Of a stretch of DNA of 13,580 nucleotides, positions 6,693 to 11,417 are shown one piece after another. This stretch comes from Deltaproteobacteria bacterium UBA2385. Lineage in GTDB: Bacteria; Myxococcota_A; UBA796; UBA2385. The notes beneath the pieces are model-generated. The model worked only from the letters and a program-made list of their open reading frames with translations. It was not told the DNA's origin and did no database searches. The first letter of the stretch is position 1, and every line of letters begins with the position of its first letter. The stretch lies in contig DDSR01000154.1 of NCBI GenBank assembly GCA_002343455.1, forward strand, positions 1 to 13,580. Direction: 5' to 3'. A program made the position numbers and the translations under genes.

Positions 6693-7832
6693 GTGGCTTG
6701 CAATCCCCGCACCGTCATCATCGGCGCCGGCCTCGCCGGGGCGGCGGTGGCGCACTTCCTCGACGGGCCGGCCCTGGTGTTGGAGCAGGGCAGCCAGGCT
6801 GGGGCCGAGGCCAGCGCCCAGAACGCGGGCATGGTCCGGCTGCTGGTCGAAGACCCGGTCGAGCGGCGGCTGGCCTTGCGGGGCGAGGCCCGGCTGCGCG
6901 AGCTGGGCGAGGAGGGCAGCCGGGTCACGGGGGCGGTGCACGGGCTGGTGCACGACCCGGGCGAGCTGGACGACGCCGTCGCCGCCCTACGCGCGGCCGG
7001 GCACGAGGTCCAGTCCGTGGACCGAGCCGCGGACGTGGCGCCCGTCCTGGCCGGGGCGGCCCTGCGGAGGGCCTGGTACGTCCCCGGCGCCCGGGTGGCC
7101 GACCCGCACGCGTTGATCCAGCGGCTGCTGGCCGGGGCCGAGCTGCGGCGCGGGGTGCAGGTGCGCTCGCTGATCGTCGAGTCCGGTCGGCTGGTGGGCC
7201 TGCAGACCAGCCAGGGGCCGCTCCACGCCGAGCGCGTCGTCCTGGCCGCGGGCGCCTGGGCCGGGGCGCTCGCCGCCACCGCCGGTCTGCATCGGCCGCT
7301 GTTCCCCGTGCGCCGCAGCCTCTTGCTCACCACCCCGCACCCCCTCGCCCGGCCCGAGCACCCCTGGTGCTGGCTGGAAGACCTCGGCCTCTACCTGCGA
7401 CCCGAAGCCGGCCGCTGGCTGCTCTCCGGCTGCGACGAGCGGGTCGAGGCGGCCCCCCAGGGTCCCGGCTCCCGCGGCGAGCTCGACCCCGATTGGCGCG
7501 ACCAGGTCGGCGAGCGCTTGCTGGCCACCCTGCCCGCCATCGAGGAGGTCGGCTGGTCCGGGGGCTGGACCGGCCTGCGCACGTTTGCGCCCGACCGACG
7601 GCCGCTGCTGGGGCCCGATCCGGAGCTGCCAGGACTGTTCTGGGCCGCCGGCCTGGGAGGCTTCGGCCTGACGGCGCACCTCGCCGTGGGGGAGGCGGTG
7701 GCCGCCTGGCTGGGAGGTGCGCCACCGGCCTGGCTGCGGTCGGAGGAGGTCGACCCCGGGCGGACCATGCCGCGACGGTGGGTGATCCGACCGCTGGGGA
7801 CTCATCATGGGAGCCGGCTGGTTTCGGGTTGA
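6693..7832 (+). CDS. DAO-family FAD-dependent oxidoreductase
   Basis: A 379-residue flavoprotein. The GTG start at 6693 follows a GAGGGGGG stretch and places the dinucleotide-binding motif at once: VIIGAGLAG (Gly11, Gly13, Gly16) with Glu31 closing the second strand for the FAD ribose. AEASAQNAGMVR is the usual post-Rossmann segment. Near the C-terminus, APDRRPLLGPDPELPGLFWA followed by GLGGFGLTAHLAVGEAVAAW is the signature second FAD-contacting region of the DAO superfamily, which includes glycine, D-amino-acid, sarcosine and glycerol-3-phosphate oxidases. The substrate cannot be read from sequence. No signal peptide, so probably cytoplasmic or membrane-associated. The family fold normally ends near AAWLGG (about residue 342); the Arg-rich tail to residue 379 is extra, and codons 337-379 with the stop are duplicated at 10007-10138. 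Confidence 0.88.
   Translation: MACNPRTVIIGAGLAGAAVAHFLDGPALVLEQGSQAGAEASAQNAGMVRLLVEDPVERRLALRGEARLRELGEEGSRVTGAVHGLVHDPGELDDAVAALRAAGHEVQSVDRAADVAPVLAGAALRRAWYVPGARVADPHALIQRLLAGAELRRGVQVRSLIVESGRLVGLQTSQGPLHAERVVLAAGAWAGALAATAGLHRPLFPVRRSLLLTTPHPLARPEHPWCWLEDLGLYLRPEAGRWLLSGCDERVEAAPQGPGSRGELDPDWRDQVGERLLATLPAIEEVGWSGGWTGLRTFAPDRRPLLGPDPELPGLFWAAGLGGFGLTAHLAVGEAVAAWLGGAPPAWLRSEEVDPGRTMPRRWVIRPLGTHHGSRLVSG
7701..7832 (+). repeat. Source copy of a 132-bp duplicated segment (DAO gene 3' end)
   Basis: This stretch aligns without gaps to 10007-10138. I count about 15 mismatches in 132 positions (about 89% identity). It covers the last 43 codons and the stop of the oxidoreductase gene. Confidence 0.9.
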
Positions 7833-7871
7833 TTTGCCCCTGGCGCGATCGTTTGTGGTAGTGTCTCCCTT

Positions 7872-7886
7872 GCGGGATGTTCCCGC
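7872..7886 (+). other. Hairpin in the leader of the FG-GAP lipoprotein gene
   Basis: GCGGGA (7872-7877) pairs perfectly with TCCCGC (7881-7886) around a TGT loop. An in-frame ATG at 7877 lies within it, which makes that ATG a less likely start than the GTG at 7919. There is no T-run, so it is not an obvious terminator for the oxidoreductase gene; it could affect leader folding. Confidence 0.5.
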
Positions 7887-7903
7887 GCCGATCTGGGCAT
7901 TCC

Positions 7904-7908
7904 GGAGG
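7904..7908 (+). promoter_or_regulatory. Ribosome-binding site supporting a GTG start at 7919
   Basis: GGAGG at 7904-7908 lies 10 nt before the GTG at 7919, slightly long but acceptable. The alternative ATG at 7877 has only GCGGG directly abutting it. Confidence 0.55.
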
Positions 7909-7918
7909 ACCTCTTCTC

Positions 7919-9580
7919 GTGATCCCCTGGCTCCTTCCAATGCTCCTCGCCTGCGCGGGGGGCAAGGCCGGCGGCGACGGCGGGTCCGTCCATGACACCG
8001 GCGAGTCGCCGGACACGGGCGATCCCGTCGACGCCGATGGCGACGGGCACCTCCCTGCCCCTTGGGGCGAGGACTGCGACGACGCCGATCTGACCATCCA
8101 CCCCGACGCGGTAGAGCGCTGCGGCGACGGAGTGGACCAGGACTGTGACGGACAAGAGCTGGGCTGTACCGGAGCTATGTCGGCGGACGTCGCGGGTTCC
8201 TGGCTGAAGGGGGACGAGTACACCAGGGCCGTGGGCCGGTCTCTCGAAGTGGTTCCCGACTGGTCGGCGCTGGGTCCGTTGATCGTCGTCGGGGCGCCGT
8301 GGTCGACGGACGATCTGGACAACGAGCACAAGGGAGCCGTGTATTTTGTTCATCCAGACGCAATGAGCTACGGTCAGGGCATCGACCGTCACGCCGAGTT
8401 CGTCATCACCGAGACCGATGCCGAGATGAACCTGGGCTGGGACTTGGCCGTTCTGGACATCGACCAGGACGGCTTCAGCGACCTGCTTGTCGGTTCGCCA
8501 AACACCGGGTACCACCCAGAGCGTCGCGGGGAGGCTTGGGTGCTCTATGGTCCACGGGCAGAGGGGGGCACCATCGACGAGGTTGGGGATGTACAGTTGA
8601 CGGGTTCGGTCCCAACGATGGGACTCGCCAGTGGGGTTCACCTGAGCCCCGATGCCACCGGCGACGGCAAGCCCGACCTGGCTCTGCTCTATCCCAGCGG
8701 CTGCCGTGCGGACGGCCACGGGGGGGGCTTCATCGTCAGCTCGGATCGCCTCTACAATCGGGAGCTCGACGCCAAGGATGTTGTGTTTCAAGGCGAGTCC
8801 CCCTGTCTGACCATCTACACCGGGCTGGTGCTCGCCGATTTCAACGGCGATGGCATCGAGGACGTCGCGGTTGGGGCCCAGTCGGGGGGCTCTACCGTCG
8901 ATCCGGTCACACACACCTCCGACGGCCTGGGCCCGGGCTATGCGTACATCGTGTTGGGCCCGCTCGTGGCCAGCCGATCGCTCGCTGATGCGGACGGTCG
9001 CATCAGCGGAAACAGCTCTCAGGACACACTCAGCCGGACCCTGGAGGTGGGTAGTGACTTCGATGGTGACGGCTTGCCGGAGCTGATCATCGGCGCGCCC
9101 GCCGAGGAGCAGAGCGCAGAGTCCGCCGGTGCTGCCTATGTGGTGCCCGGCGACGATGTGGCCCGTTACGCGCCCGTGGCAGAGGTCGCCTCTGTGTCGG
9201 TGTTCGGTGGCAGGACAGAGGGCCTGAAGCTCGGCAGCGGAGCGATCGACGGGGGCGACCTGGACGGCGACGGGAAGCGGGAGCTGATCGTCGTCGCGGA
9301 GGCCTTGGACTGGGCGTCGAAGGTTCACAAGGGCCGCGGAGAGGCCTACGTCTTTCGTGGGCCCCAGGAAGGCACGCTGACCACGGACGACGCCATCCTG
9401 ACGGTCTTTGGACCATATCCAGAGGACTACTTCGGGGGCATCTCAGGCTACGGTGGATCGCTCTTCGGCGACGTGGACCTCAACGCGGACGGATACGATG
9501 ACTGGCTCGCTGGCGCTGCGTTGGCCAATGAGGACTATGCCGGCGCGGTGTACTCCTTCTATGGAGGCGTGTGGGACTGA
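7919..9580 (+). CDS. FG-GAP (integrin-alpha-like) lipoprotein with MopE-type metal-binding motif
   Basis: The product has 553 residues from the GTG at 7919. The signal is very short, with lipobox LPMLLAC and candidate lipidated Cys12. An upstream ATG at 7877 would add 14 residues, including two Arg, and cannot be excluded. A Gly/Asp-rich linker leads to residues about 38-83, which match the Cys/Asp putative metal-binding motif first noted in MopE: DADGDG, then GEDCDDAD, then GDGVDQDCDG. The rest is at least six FG-GAP repeats with calcium-loop cores: DIDQDGFSDLLVG, DATGDGKPDLAL, DFNGDGIEDVAVG, DFDGDGLPELIIG, DLDGDGKRELIV and DLNADGYDDWLAG. Seven such blades form an integrin-alpha-like propeller, so it is likely an outer-surface binding or adhesion protein. 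It is 86 nt downstream of the oxidoreductase and probably transcribed separately. It carries a G8 run at 8720-8727. Confidence 0.88.
   Translation: MIPWLLPMLLACAGGKAGGDGGSVHDTGESPDTGDPVDADGDGHLPAPWGEDCDDADLTIHPDAVERCGDGVDQDCDGQELGCTGAMSADVAGSWLKGDEYTRAVGRSLEVVPDWSALGPLIVVGAPWSTDDLDNEHKGAVYFVHPDAMSYGQGIDRHAEFVITETDAEMNLGWDLAVLDIDQDGFSDLLVGSPNTGYHPERRGEAWVLYGPRAEGGTIDEVGDVQLTGSVPTMGLASGVHLSPDATGDGKPDLALLYPSGCRADGHGGGFIVSSDRLYNRELDAKDVVFQGESPCLTIYTGLVLADFNGDGIEDVAVGAQSGGSTVDPVTHTSDGLGPGYAYIVLGPLVASRSLADADGRISGNSSQDTLSRTLEVGSDFDGDGLPELIIGAPAEEQSAESAGAAYVVPGDDVARYAPVAEVASVSVFGGRTEGLKLGSGAIDGGDLDGDGKRELIVVAEALDWASKVHKGRGEAYVFRGPQEGTLTTDDAILTVFGPYPEDYFGGISGYGGSLFGDVDLNADGYDDWLAGAALANEDYAGAVYSFYGGVWD
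8720..8727 (+). repeat. Homopolymer run of eight G inside the FG-GAP gene
   Basis: Eight consecutive G residues encode part of a Gly-rich loop (GHGGGF). The frame is intact here, but a one-base slip would truncate the protein about halfway through the propeller. Confidence 0.9.
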
Positions 9581-9623
9581 CGCGTTGGTGACTGGACCGC
9601 TGGAGACGGTGGGCGAGTCTAAT

Positions 9624-9670
9624 GCGGACATATCTGCCCTCTGTGAATCACAAAGGCCTGCTATGTCCGC
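9624..9670. repeat. 47-bp imperfect palindrome, copy 1
   Basis: Two 22-nt arms surround a 3-nt AAT centre. The outer 9 bp (GCGGACATA/TATGTCCGC) pair perfectly, and of the inner 13 positions nine pair, including CTGTG-type sequence beside the loop. The copy begins 43 nt after the stop of the FG-GAP gene, so it would be transcribed in its 3' UTR if the message runs on. It lacks a T-run and resembles a small palindromic repeat or miniature element more than a terminator. Confidence 0.8.
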
Positions 9671-9768
9671 CCCTGACGTCGCATATGGCACAATCCGTAG
9701 TCCCGGGCGCAAATTGATGCGGGAATGCGCTCAATGAGGCCCTGTCGAGGCCGTTCGAGCCTACTGAG

Positions 9769-9815
9769 GCGGACATATCTGCCCTCTGTGAATCACAAAG
9801 GCCTGCTATGTCCGC
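9769..9815. repeat. 47-bp imperfect palindrome, copy 2
   Basis: Identical in all 47 positions to 9624-9670 and in the same orientation, 145 bp further on. Its flanks differ from those of copy 1, so only the palindrome itself is repeated. Its right end coincides with the left boundary of the pseudogene block that resembles 10297-10520. No target-site duplication is evident at either copy. Confidence 0.8.
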
Positions 9816-9831
9816 GTCTGGCCGAGCGAGA

Positions 9832-9974
9832 CTCCTGACCATAGCGCGATCACCCGCAACAGCTCCTCGGTCCGTCCCGGGCGGAGGCGGGGAGGGGCGC
9901 CGCTTCCACCAGCCGACGGCGCCGCCTGTGCCGAGTAGGAGGGGGAGCAGCAGCCGGGGGTACTTGGATCTCTT
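9832..9974 (-). pseudogene. Degenerate copy of the small membrane-protein gene at 10314-10487
   Basis: Read on the minus strand this encodes LLLPLLLGTGGAVGWWK, identical to the membrane segment of the intact gene, followed by a Pro-rich stretch. The ATG has become AAG (9972-9974). About 30 nt are missing in the middle, so the conserved ending (intact EELMRVIG, here EELLRVIA) continues in another frame. The stop codon is also lost. Homology extends over the wider block 9815-10007 against 10297-10520. Three independent lesions make expression as the same protein very unlikely. Confidence 0.85.
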
Positions 9975-10003
9975 CGGCCCAGGGTATCGCCTTGGTTGAT
10001 GGG

Positions 10004-10138
10004 ATGGCCGCCCGGCTGGGAGGTGTGCCGCCGGACTGGCTGCGGACGGAGGAGGTCGACCCCGGGAGGACCATGCCGCGACGGTGGGTGATCCGACCGC
10101 AGGGCACGCATCATGGGAGCAAGGTGATTGCGGGCTGA
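10004..10138 (+). pseudogene. Duplicated C-terminal fragment of the DAO oxidoreductase gene
   Basis: An ATG at 10004 opens a 44-codon frame ending in TGA at 10136-10138. Its peptide contains EEVDPGRTMPRRWVIRP and THHGS, exactly as in the tail of the oxidoreductase ending at 7832, with ten residue differences over 44. The DNA from 10007 on aligns ungapped with 7701-7832 at about 89% identity. All the FAD-binding parts are absent, so this is a gene relic unless the short peptide or the DNA itself has a role. It is fused directly to the relic of the small membrane-protein gene, and the two blocks meet at about 10001-10010. Confidence 0.85.
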
Positions 10139-10296
10139 GAGGGTGTTGACAGAAGAGCGGCACACGCCCGGCGGCCTGACTTTCTGATGAAACATCCATT
10201 CGGAGTGACGCTGGGCTCAGCCATCAGGAAGGCAGGAAGGGAGGAACGCAGGAAGCGAACCGGCAGTGCGCGCCGGGATCCGTCCGCATTCCTTGG

Positions 10297-10520
10297 CGTC
10301 GGGCCGAGCGAGGCTACTGCACGTAGCCGATCACCCGCATCAGCTCCTCGGTCTCCTCGCGGCTGGGGCCGGTGTCCTCACCCTCCGTCACAGCAGGAGG
10401 CGGAGGGGGGCGCAGCTTCCACCAGCCGACGGCGCCGCCTGTGCCGAGCAGGAGGGGGAGCAGCAGCCAGGGGAGCTTGGTTCTCATCGGCTCAGGGTAT
10501 CGCCTTGGGGGAGGGGATGG
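10297..10520. repeat. Intact partner of the duplicated block at 9815-10007
   Basis: The stretch spans the small gene at 10314-10487 plus short flanks, including the last codons of the gene upstream of it. The copy at 9815-10007 is about 30 nt shorter because of one internal deletion but otherwise clearly alignable, with long identical runs such as 9899-9941. Confidence 0.8.
10314..10487 (-). CDS. Small single-span membrane protein (57 aa), unknown function
   Basis: A 57-residue protein: short basic N-terminus (MRTK), a hydrophobic segment (about residues 5-22, LPWLLLPLLLGTGGAVGWW), a Pro-rich linker and an acidic helical tail ending EELMRVIGYVQ. The start at 10487 was chosen because it places the membrane segment at the N-terminus; the longer upstream frame is Arg/Ser/Pro-rich and looks non-coding. 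It begins 4 nt after the stop of the 107-residue gene on the same strand, so the two are probably co-translated. No clear ribosome-binding site is seen. I do not recognise a family. The existence of a decayed second copy shows the segment has been duplicated, and this copy has kept an intact frame. Confidence 0.65.
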   Translation of the reverse strand: MRTKLPWLLLPLLLGTGGAVGWWKLRPPPPPAVTEGEDTGPSREETEELMRVIGYVQ

Positions 10521-10815
10521 CGAGCGGCCGCGGCGGGAGCCCTCCCGAATCGGGCTGCACCTGCACCACGTGGTCGCCCCCCGGCTCCAGCTCGCCCGCG
10601 ACCGGGGGTTGCCCGAAGTCGGGTGTGCCCTGACCCCCTGCGCTGCCGAAGGCCAGGGTGGCCACCTCGTGCGCACCGCGGAACGTGTTCTGGCTCATAT
10701 GCCTGGCGGCCTCTGCCTCCTTCTCATTGCCCACAAGACGGGCGAGCACCCACACGAGGAAGATGAGCAGGACCAGCAATGCGAAGAGGCCAATGGTTGC
10801 TCCTGGCGGGCTCAT
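10492..10815 (-). CDS. Single-span membrane protein (107 aa), unknown function
   Basis: The N-terminus has no basic residue before a strong transmembrane helix (about residues 8-29, LFALLVLLIFLVWVLARLVG), followed by a charged helix (NEKEAEAARHMSQNTF) and a Gly/Pro-rich soluble tail without obvious fold. The layout, one helix and a flexible tail, suits an accessory subunit or an anchored linker protein. It is the first gene of a likely two-gene unit with the 57-residue protein and is divergent from the gene at 10872, with only 56 bp between starts. The ribosome-binding site is weak. No family recognised. Confidence 0.65.
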   Translation of the reverse strand: MSPPGATIGLFALLVLLIFLVWVLARLVGNEKEAEAARHMSQNTFRGAHEVATLAFGSAGGQGTPDFGQPPVAGELEPGGDHVVQVQPDSGGLPPRPLAIPSPKAIP

Positions 10816-10871
10816 GATACACGGCTTTCAATGCCCCCGAACCTCGAAGACGCAAATCCCTGACGGATCCC

Positions 10872-11417
10872 ATGCTCTCGCAGACGCACCTGCACTGGTT
10901 GAAGCCAGCGTTTCCTGAGGCCCGCTGGCTCCACCTCTCGCCTGCGGGCGGCGAGCGTTTCGGCGAGCTGCTCGTCGTGTCGGTCCCGGCCTCCGAGCTG
11001 CCCGACCTCGACGCCGCGACGGTCGTGTTGTGGAAGCTCCGACTGTGCGTCGTGGAGGAGCTGCCCTACGAGGCTTGGGACGACGCCATGGTGGGGTGGC
11101 TCCGAGGCCTTGGGCTGCACCACGGGCTCGATGACCTGGAGCTCGGGGACTTCGCCGGGGTGCCGCCCGGGGACGAGCACCTGGGAACCCTCAGGAGACA
11201 CAGCGAGGCTGTGCTGGCCGCCCAGGCCAGCTTCACGCCGCTCGTGAACCCCTTGCGCGAGGGCCCGACCCCAGGCAGCGGTGGGTCCCTGGCCAGGCTC
11301 CTCTTCCTTCGGCCCGAAGCGCTGCGTCGAAAGCTCCGCGACGAGTGGAACGACATCACCACGCTGTTCGAGCACGACGGGCAGACCGTGCTGGCCCATT
11401 GGGACACGAGCGCGTGA
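10872..11417 (+). CDS. Soluble protein of unknown function (181 aa)
   Basis: No signal peptide or membrane segment. The N-terminal part (LHWLKPAFPEARWLHL, then FGELLVVSVPASELPDL) looks like alternating strands and helices; the middle is acidic and Leu-rich (WLRGLGLHHGLDDLELGDF), and the C-terminus ends in a basic helix (RPEALRRKLRDEWNDITTLF) and a strand. Amino-acid usage is natural for a folded protein, which favours this strand over the antisense frame covering the same region. The ATG at 10872 is the first in the frame; only a weak purine stretch precedes it. I recognise no family or catalytic motif. The next gene starts 46 nt after its stop but seems to have its own promoter. Confidence 0.7.
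   Translation: MLSQTHLHWLKPAFPEARWLHLSPAGGERFGELLVVSVPASELPDLDAATVVLWKLRLCVVEELPYEAWDDAMVGWLRGLGLHHGLDDLELGDFAGVPPGDEHLGTLRRHSEAVLAAQASFTPLVNPLREGPTPGSGGSLARLLFLRPEALRRKLRDEWNDITTLFEHDGQTVLAHWDTSA

What the first reader, a model, noticed from the sequence alone, without database searches (positions are those of the whole stretch)
9815..10138. Two unrelated gene fragments duplicated and fused into one pseudogene mosaic
Positions 9815-10007 copy the small minus-strand gene block at 10297-10520, and 10007-10138 copy the last 132 bp of the oxidoreductase gene at 7701-7832. The sources lie more than 2.4 kb apart, yet their relics abut with a shared ATGGC-like junction. The first relic has lost start, frame and stop; the second is gapless. 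Either a rearrangement joined two segments, or the fused unit is a copy of an older arrangement in which a DAO gene stood next to the small gene. It could also be one member of a genome-wide repeat family.
Basis: partly seen in the sequence, partly recalled or inferred. Interest (0 to 1): 0.7.

Follow-up and report, generated by a model that had tools for sequence, protein, structure and literature searches.

The report
Fossil junction of a tandem duplication
Two gene scraps lying side by side are most likely the decayed middle joint of an old head-to-tail duplication in an uncultured bacterium; the working genes survive on either side, so it is an ordinary genome scar, though an unusually legible one.

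Summary
Window 9816-10008 (A') is a broken copy of a small minus-strand gene block at 10298-10521 (A); 10009-10138 (B') is a gapless copy of the last 130 bp of the oxidoreductase gene, 7703-7832 (B). The order is B-A'-B'-A in one orientation, outer copies intact, inner ones broken or truncated. At the A'/B' joint the intact parents (7681-7702, 10500-10521) share 19 of 22 bases. A and B diverged equally (24/192 and 15/130 mismatches, Fisher p = 0.86). One tandem duplication between short imperfect repeats, followed by decay, explains this: A'/B' is its novel joint. The two spacers (B-A', 1983 bp with an FG-GAP gene and a 192-bp paired palindrome; B'-A, 159 bp with a dispersed repeat) no longer align, so at least one was replaced; which one is not settled. 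No second fused copy was found in the genome. In five of five relatives where both genes were found they lie on different contigs, so their closeness looks special to this lineage. A genome-wide repeat family is not supported. A well-preserved new example of a familiar process; low general interest.

The parts
6693..7832 (+). Intact FAD-dependent oxidoreductase (DAO family) gene, 379 aa; its tail is source B
   Evidence: Pfam PF01266 at 1.9e-47; relatives at 71% and 68% identity in the two other genomes of the same genus
7681..7702 (+). Parental short homology, DAO side
   Evidence: 19 of 22 identical to 10500-10521
7703..7832 (+). Segment B: source of the second relic (end of the DAO gene, stop included)
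7877..9580 (+). FG-GAP repeat protein gene (a likelier start is the in-frame GTG at 7919, read by eye), lying between B and A'
   Evidence: PF01839 at 1.1e-30
9624..9815 (.). 192-bp element with the same 47-nt imperfect palindrome at each end, abutting A'
   Evidence: hairpin folding
9816..10008 (-). A': broken copy of the small gene block (start, frame and stop lost)
   Evidence: 24/192 mismatches plus 1-nt and 32-nt indels
9987..10008 (.). Novel joint zone, where the A' and B' matches overlap
   Evidence: the repeat finder D1 and D2 overlap here; alignments
10009..10138 (+). B': gapless copy of the DAO tail, still in frame to its stop; an in-frame ATG lies at 10004
   Evidence: 15/130 mismatches; translation
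10139..10297 (.). Spacer between B' and A; 10213-10282 belongs to a dispersed GGAAGG-rich repeat
   Evidence: 15 further matches in the own genome at E <= 0.1; no detectable similarity to the left spacer
10298..10521 (-). Segment A: source of the first relic
10314..10487 (-). Intact small gene, 57 aa, one hydrophobic stretch, C-terminal end conserved
   Evidence: relatives beside the same neighbour genes in other genomes; protein relative P0122 at 85% over 60% of the query
10500..10521 (.). Parental short homology, small-gene side (just upstream of the small gene, inside the last codons of ORF 10492-10815)
   Evidence: 19 of 22 identical to 7681-7702

Best explanation
The mosaic is the decayed novel joint of one tandem duplication. 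Shown: the order B-A'-B'-A in one orientation, intact outer copies, broken or truncated inner copies, equal divergence, and a 19/22 parental homology at the joint. Inferred: the DAO tail (B) and the small gene (A) already lay on the same stretch, and recombination or template switching between the imperfect 22-bp repeats at 7681-7702 and 10500-10521 duplicated the segment between them, giving two B-A units in a row with A joined to B in the middle. The outer DAO gene and outer small gene stayed whole; the inner small gene (little of its upstream region) and the inner DAO tail (no gene body) were redundant and decayed. Later insertions or deletions made the two B-A spacers different. I slightly favour insertion of the FG-GAP gene with its paired palindrome into the left copy; deletion of a second FG-GAP copy from the right is not excluded. 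No present function is needed.
For: Both similarities are far above chance. All four segments have the orientation and order that a tandem duplication requires. The parental 22-mers at the joint share 19/22; with the known repeats masked, 30 of 75,946,650 window 22-mer pairs reach that level. Divergence is equal in A and B (24/192 and 15/130, Fisher p = 0.86), as one event predicts. At 14 sites that differ in the last 117 nt, B agrees with one or both same-genus outgroups at 8, B' at 3, and 3 are undecided, so B' looks like the faster copy. Substitutions between B and B' do not differ from a uniform neutral simulation (10 of 15 in nonsynonymous codons, 11.5 expected, P = 0.26; a stop-free frame in 61% of runs). 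Junctions with a few shared bases are documented for E. coli: all 40 amplification junctions sequenced in PMC3161906 (passages read).
Against: The two spacers (1983 and 159 bp) show no remaining similarity (score 21, shuffle mean 20.4, 42% of shuffles as high), so at least one replacement must be assumed and the size of the original unit is unknown. No relative with the duplication, or with DAO beside the small gene, was found. The nearest DAO relative, P0002 (83%), ends VIAG like B', whereas B ends LVSG, so near the 3' end B is not simply the conserved copy. The 22-mer length was chosen after seeing the match, so its rarity is a guide, not a p-value.
Confidence: 0.82

Rival explanations
1. 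The fused A'-B' unit was copied in from elsewhere, from another genome or locus with a different gene order (transfer, or movement with the 192-bp palindromic element that abuts A').
For: The similarity of A' to A starts right at the end of the palindromic element; B' shares the VIAG end with the 83% relative P0002.
Against: No second copy found in the genome. In five of five relatives where both genes were found they are on different contigs. Import of a foreign unit does not explain the 19/22 parental homology at the joint or why both sources flank it in the right order. Over the last 41 residues B and B' share 32, more than B' and P0002 (27).
Confidence: 0.08
2. Two independent partial duplications happened to land side by side.
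For: The two spacers do not align.
Against: Equal divergence, matching order and orientation, and the joint homology would all be coincidence.
Confidence: 0.03
3. Assembly artefact: reads of a second strain about 12% diverged were joined into this contig.
For: The genome is fragmented (496 contigs, 87.6% complete).
Against: A' carries gene-breaking indels, which a second functional strain would not show. The protein clusters of this DAO and of this small protein both list a longest contig of 31,982 bases, longer than this 22,844-base contig, which suggests that another assembly holds both genes, though the raw reads may be the same.
Confidence: 0.05
4. The joint encodes something used now: a 44-aa peptide (ATG at 10004) consisting almost wholly of the DAO tail.
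For: In-frame ATG, open frame and stop; the intact parent A has a purine-rich GGGGGAGGGG before the ATG that a translation start could use (sequence printed, judged by eye).
Against: An open frame is expected in 61% of neutral runs, and nonsynonymous changes are near the neutral number; the purine tract is broken up in A'; no relative searched has a fused copy.
Confidence: 0.02

Closest known systems
Short-homology (microhomology) junctions of duplications and amplifications in E. coli (PMC3161906, passages read)
   Same: Duplication with a novel joint at a few bases of shared sequence
   Different: Here the event is old (about 12% diverged), decayed, and known only from its scar; the joint lies in a longer, imperfect 19/22 homology
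Small variable segments attributed to illegitimate recombination in bacterial genomes (PMC2884548, passages read)
   Same: Small rearrangements that are not known mobile elements, some flanked by short direct repeats
   Different: That paper compares strains within species; here only one genome shows the feature
REP/REPIN-type palindromes (PMC3116915 and PMC3733652, listing and start of abstract only)
   Same: The neighbouring 192-bp element has a palindrome at each end and related copies in the genome
   Different: Only a handful of copies found; 47-48-nt palindromes; no link to a REP transposase shown. It is a neighbour, not the finding

Membership tests
Tandem duplication remnant | Copies in direct order and same orientation (B-A-B-A) | tested here: met
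Tandem duplication remnant | Novel joint connects the far end of one unit to the near end of the next | tested here: met
   A' end joined to B' start
Tandem duplication remnant | Outer gene copies intact, inner ones truncated or decayed | tested here: met
   DAO and small gene intact with relatives elsewhere; A' broken; B' is a tail only
Tandem duplication remnant | Both duplicated parts of equal age | tested here: met
   24/192 and 15/130, Fisher p = 0.86
Tandem duplication remnant | Sequence between B and A was duplicated too | tested here: inconclusive
   The spacers do not align now; this cannot tell later replacement from never having been duplicated, and it is the weakest point of the reading
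Tandem duplication remnant | Unduplicated ancestral order in a relative | tested here: inconclusive
   DAO and small gene are on separate contigs in G001, G004, G005, G008 and G026; no relative close enough was available
Dispersed repeat family | Further copies of the fused unit in the genome | tested here: not met
   Only the two sources and palindrome hits (40 of 139 candidates scored); no fused copy in 57 other genomes (up to 8 candidates scored per genome)
REP/REPIN (for the neighbouring 192-bp element) | Paired palindromes, several copies, associated with a Y1-type (RAYT) transposase | tested here: inconclusive
   Paired palindromes and a second full copy; three Y1 transposase hits in the genome, one of the three fetched loci bearing a single 8-nt end motif

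The most novel reading that the evidence does not exclude
The duplication joint placed an in-frame ATG, originally with a purine-rich tract in front of it, directly before the DAO tail and so created a 44-aa orphan peptide gene that is still open: a new small gene born from the scar of a tandem duplication.
Probability: 0.03. Interest if true: 0.45.

Novelty: new member of a known kind. Interest (0 to 1): 0.2.

Why it matters
It is a readable scar of how bacterial tandem duplications arise and decay: the joint homology, the sparing of the outer genes and the loss of the inner copies can be read off one locus. It also shows that two unrelated gene relics lying together need not imply a mobile element or a gene fusion. 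Its general interest is small because the process is well known.

Tried and rejected
Own-genome search for further fused copies: none beyond the two sources (40 of 139 first-look candidates scored). Search of 58 genomes (own plus 57 relatives) with 9600-10530: no fused copy; 16 of 58 had some match, namely the C-terminal end of the small gene, the dispersed repeat and other short matches (at most 8 candidates scored per genome). DAO beside the small gene: 56 DAO-bearing loci (many are the same contig fetched twice) and 12 small-gene loci were compared by tblastn at E <= 1e-3; none carried both, but flanks were 1.5 to about 10 kb, several contigs are short, and a 57-aa query can be missed. Similarity between the two spacers: none detectable. 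Neighbouring ORF 10492-10815 in relatives: matches in 3 of 57 other genomes, 32-37% identity, so it does not date the event. Rfam on the window: one match, a tRNA at 1063-1136. The REP transposase idea for the 192-bp element was left open. Long minus-strand frames across the relics (9806-10195, 9850-10107) are treated as chance frames of GC-rich DNA; only the second was scanned, with no Pfam match.

Literature: four searches; passages of two papers read; other papers seen only as listings. No claim is made that this locus is unpublished.

Full report
What is there. The window is part of a 22,844-base contig of a fragmented genome of 6.76 Mb. The nearest DAO relatives with names are metagenome assemblies labelled Oligoflexia, Myxococcota, Deltaproteobacteria and the like (record titles). 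The locus reads, left to right: an intact DAO-family oxidoreductase gene (6693-7832, +), an FG-GAP repeat gene (7877-9580, +), a 192-bp element with the same 47-nt palindrome at each end (9624-9815), relic A' (9816-10008), relic B' (10009-10138), a spacer with a dispersed repeat (10139-10297), and an intact 57-aa minus-strand gene (10314-10487) inside block A (10298-10521).

A' matches A at 168 of 192 aligned positions, with a 1-nt and a 32-nt indel; B' matches B (7703-7832) at 115 of 130 positions without a gap. E-values in the own genome are 1.1e-43 and 1.8e-45. The small gene is a real gene: of 12 fetched loci from other genomes with a relative of it, 9 also carry the relative of the 11458-12246 gene, and these 9 carry TatA or the amidohydrolase too (some loci overlap on one contig; map). 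A' has lost its start codon, its frame and its stop codon, so it is a pseudogene. B' retains frame and stop.

The joint. The repeat finder extends the B match leftward to 9987 and the A match rightward to 10008. The 22-base overlap arises because the two parents resemble each other there: 7681-7702 and 10500-10521 agree at 19 of 22 positions. With the known repeats masked, 30 of 75,946,650 pairs of window 22-mers are that similar (unmasked: 296 of 91,631,953). The length 22 was chosen after seeing the match, so this is a guide only. At the sites where the parents differ, the joint follows A up to the shared TGGC and B after it (by eye). So the joint formed at a short imperfect homology.

Why a tandem duplication. 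The order B-A'-B'-A in one orientation is that of two B-A units in a row whose middle joint links A to B. The outer copies belong to whole genes and the inner ones are truncated or broken, as such a duplication leaves them. A and B show the same divergence (12.5% and 11.5%; Fisher p = 0.86), as one event predicts. Within the last 117 nt, 14 sites differ between B and B'; B agrees with one or both same-genus outgroups at 8, B' at 3, and 3 are undecided. The changes look neutral: 10 of 15 substitutions fall in nonsynonymous codons against 11.5 in a uniform simulation (P = 0.26), and the frame stays open in 61% of runs. Junctions with a few shared bases are known from E. coli: all 40 amplification junctions sequenced in PMC3161906 had them (passages).

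What does not fit neatly. If whole units were duplicated, the B-A' spacer (7833-9815) and the B'-A spacer (10139-10297) were once the same. They show no similarity now. Either the FG-GAP gene and its palindromic element entered the left copy, or a second copy of them was lost on the right and other DNA came in. Slightly in favour of the first: the full 192-bp element occurs once more among the hits in the genome, 197 bp downstream of an FG-GAP paralogue (46% identical) on contig C124, at 72% identity over 192 nt, so gene and element may travel together; and the base after the stop codon is G in B' and in 6 of 11 relatives printed, but T in B. Both are weak. Also, P0002, the nearest DAO relative (83%), ends VIAG like B', while B ends LVSG; over the last 41 residues B and B' share 32, B and P0002 25, B' and P0002 27.

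Relatives. In G001, G004, G005, G008 and G026, the five with both a DAO relative (50-71% identity; the G008 copy has one in-frame TGA) and a small-gene relative, the two lie on different contigs. The contigs of G004 and G005 are short (3.8-11.4 kb), so there only close neighbourhood is excluded. In G001 the small gene is about 15 and 52 kb from its contig ends, so the two genes are not within 15 kb there. Of 56 DAO-bearing and 12 small-gene-bearing loci compared, none had both (many are duplicates of one contig and flanks were limited). The closeness of the two genes therefore looks special to this lineage. No genome close enough to show the unduplicated ancestor was available.

Rivals. Import of a ready-made fused unit, two independent duplications, an assembly artefact and a present-day function are weighed in the rival list; none explains order, equal age and joint homology together. 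The 44-aa open frame starting at the joint (ATG at 10004) is the most novel reading left, at about 3%.

Verdict. A new instance of a known process: the decayed joint of a short-homology tandem duplication. Real, well preserved and instructive, but ordinary.

Noticed in passing
9624-9815; contig C124 283-474 of the same genome (L090): A 192-bp element with a 47-48-nt palindrome at each end. By eye the two end palindromes are identical within each element but differ between the two elements, and both elements lie just downstream of related FG-GAP genes. Related single palindromes lie on C402, C179 and C16. No match in the 56 other genomes searched at E <= 0.001.
   Followed up: partly
10213-10282: GGAAGG-rich dispersed repeat with 15 other matches in the own genome at E <= 0.1; short matches also in a genome of another family (G057).
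   Followed up: partly
10492-11417: Two ORFs (107 and 181 aa) stand between the small gene and the 11458-12246 gene here, whereas in the same-genus genome G001 the aligned parts of these two genes are about 140 bp apart: a likely lineage-specific insertion.
   Followed up: partly
L090, about 280: Assembly gap (NN) next to a third, partial copy of the palindrome on C124, so the true copy number there is unknown.
   Followed up: no
L136: A public contig titled Klebsiella pneumoniae (MAG) encodes a 49% relative of this DAO and has the length of contig C53 of G053, which genome search places in the same order as this genome: the title is probably wrong.
   Followed up: no
1063-1136: tRNA gene (Rfam RF00005).
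   Followed up: no
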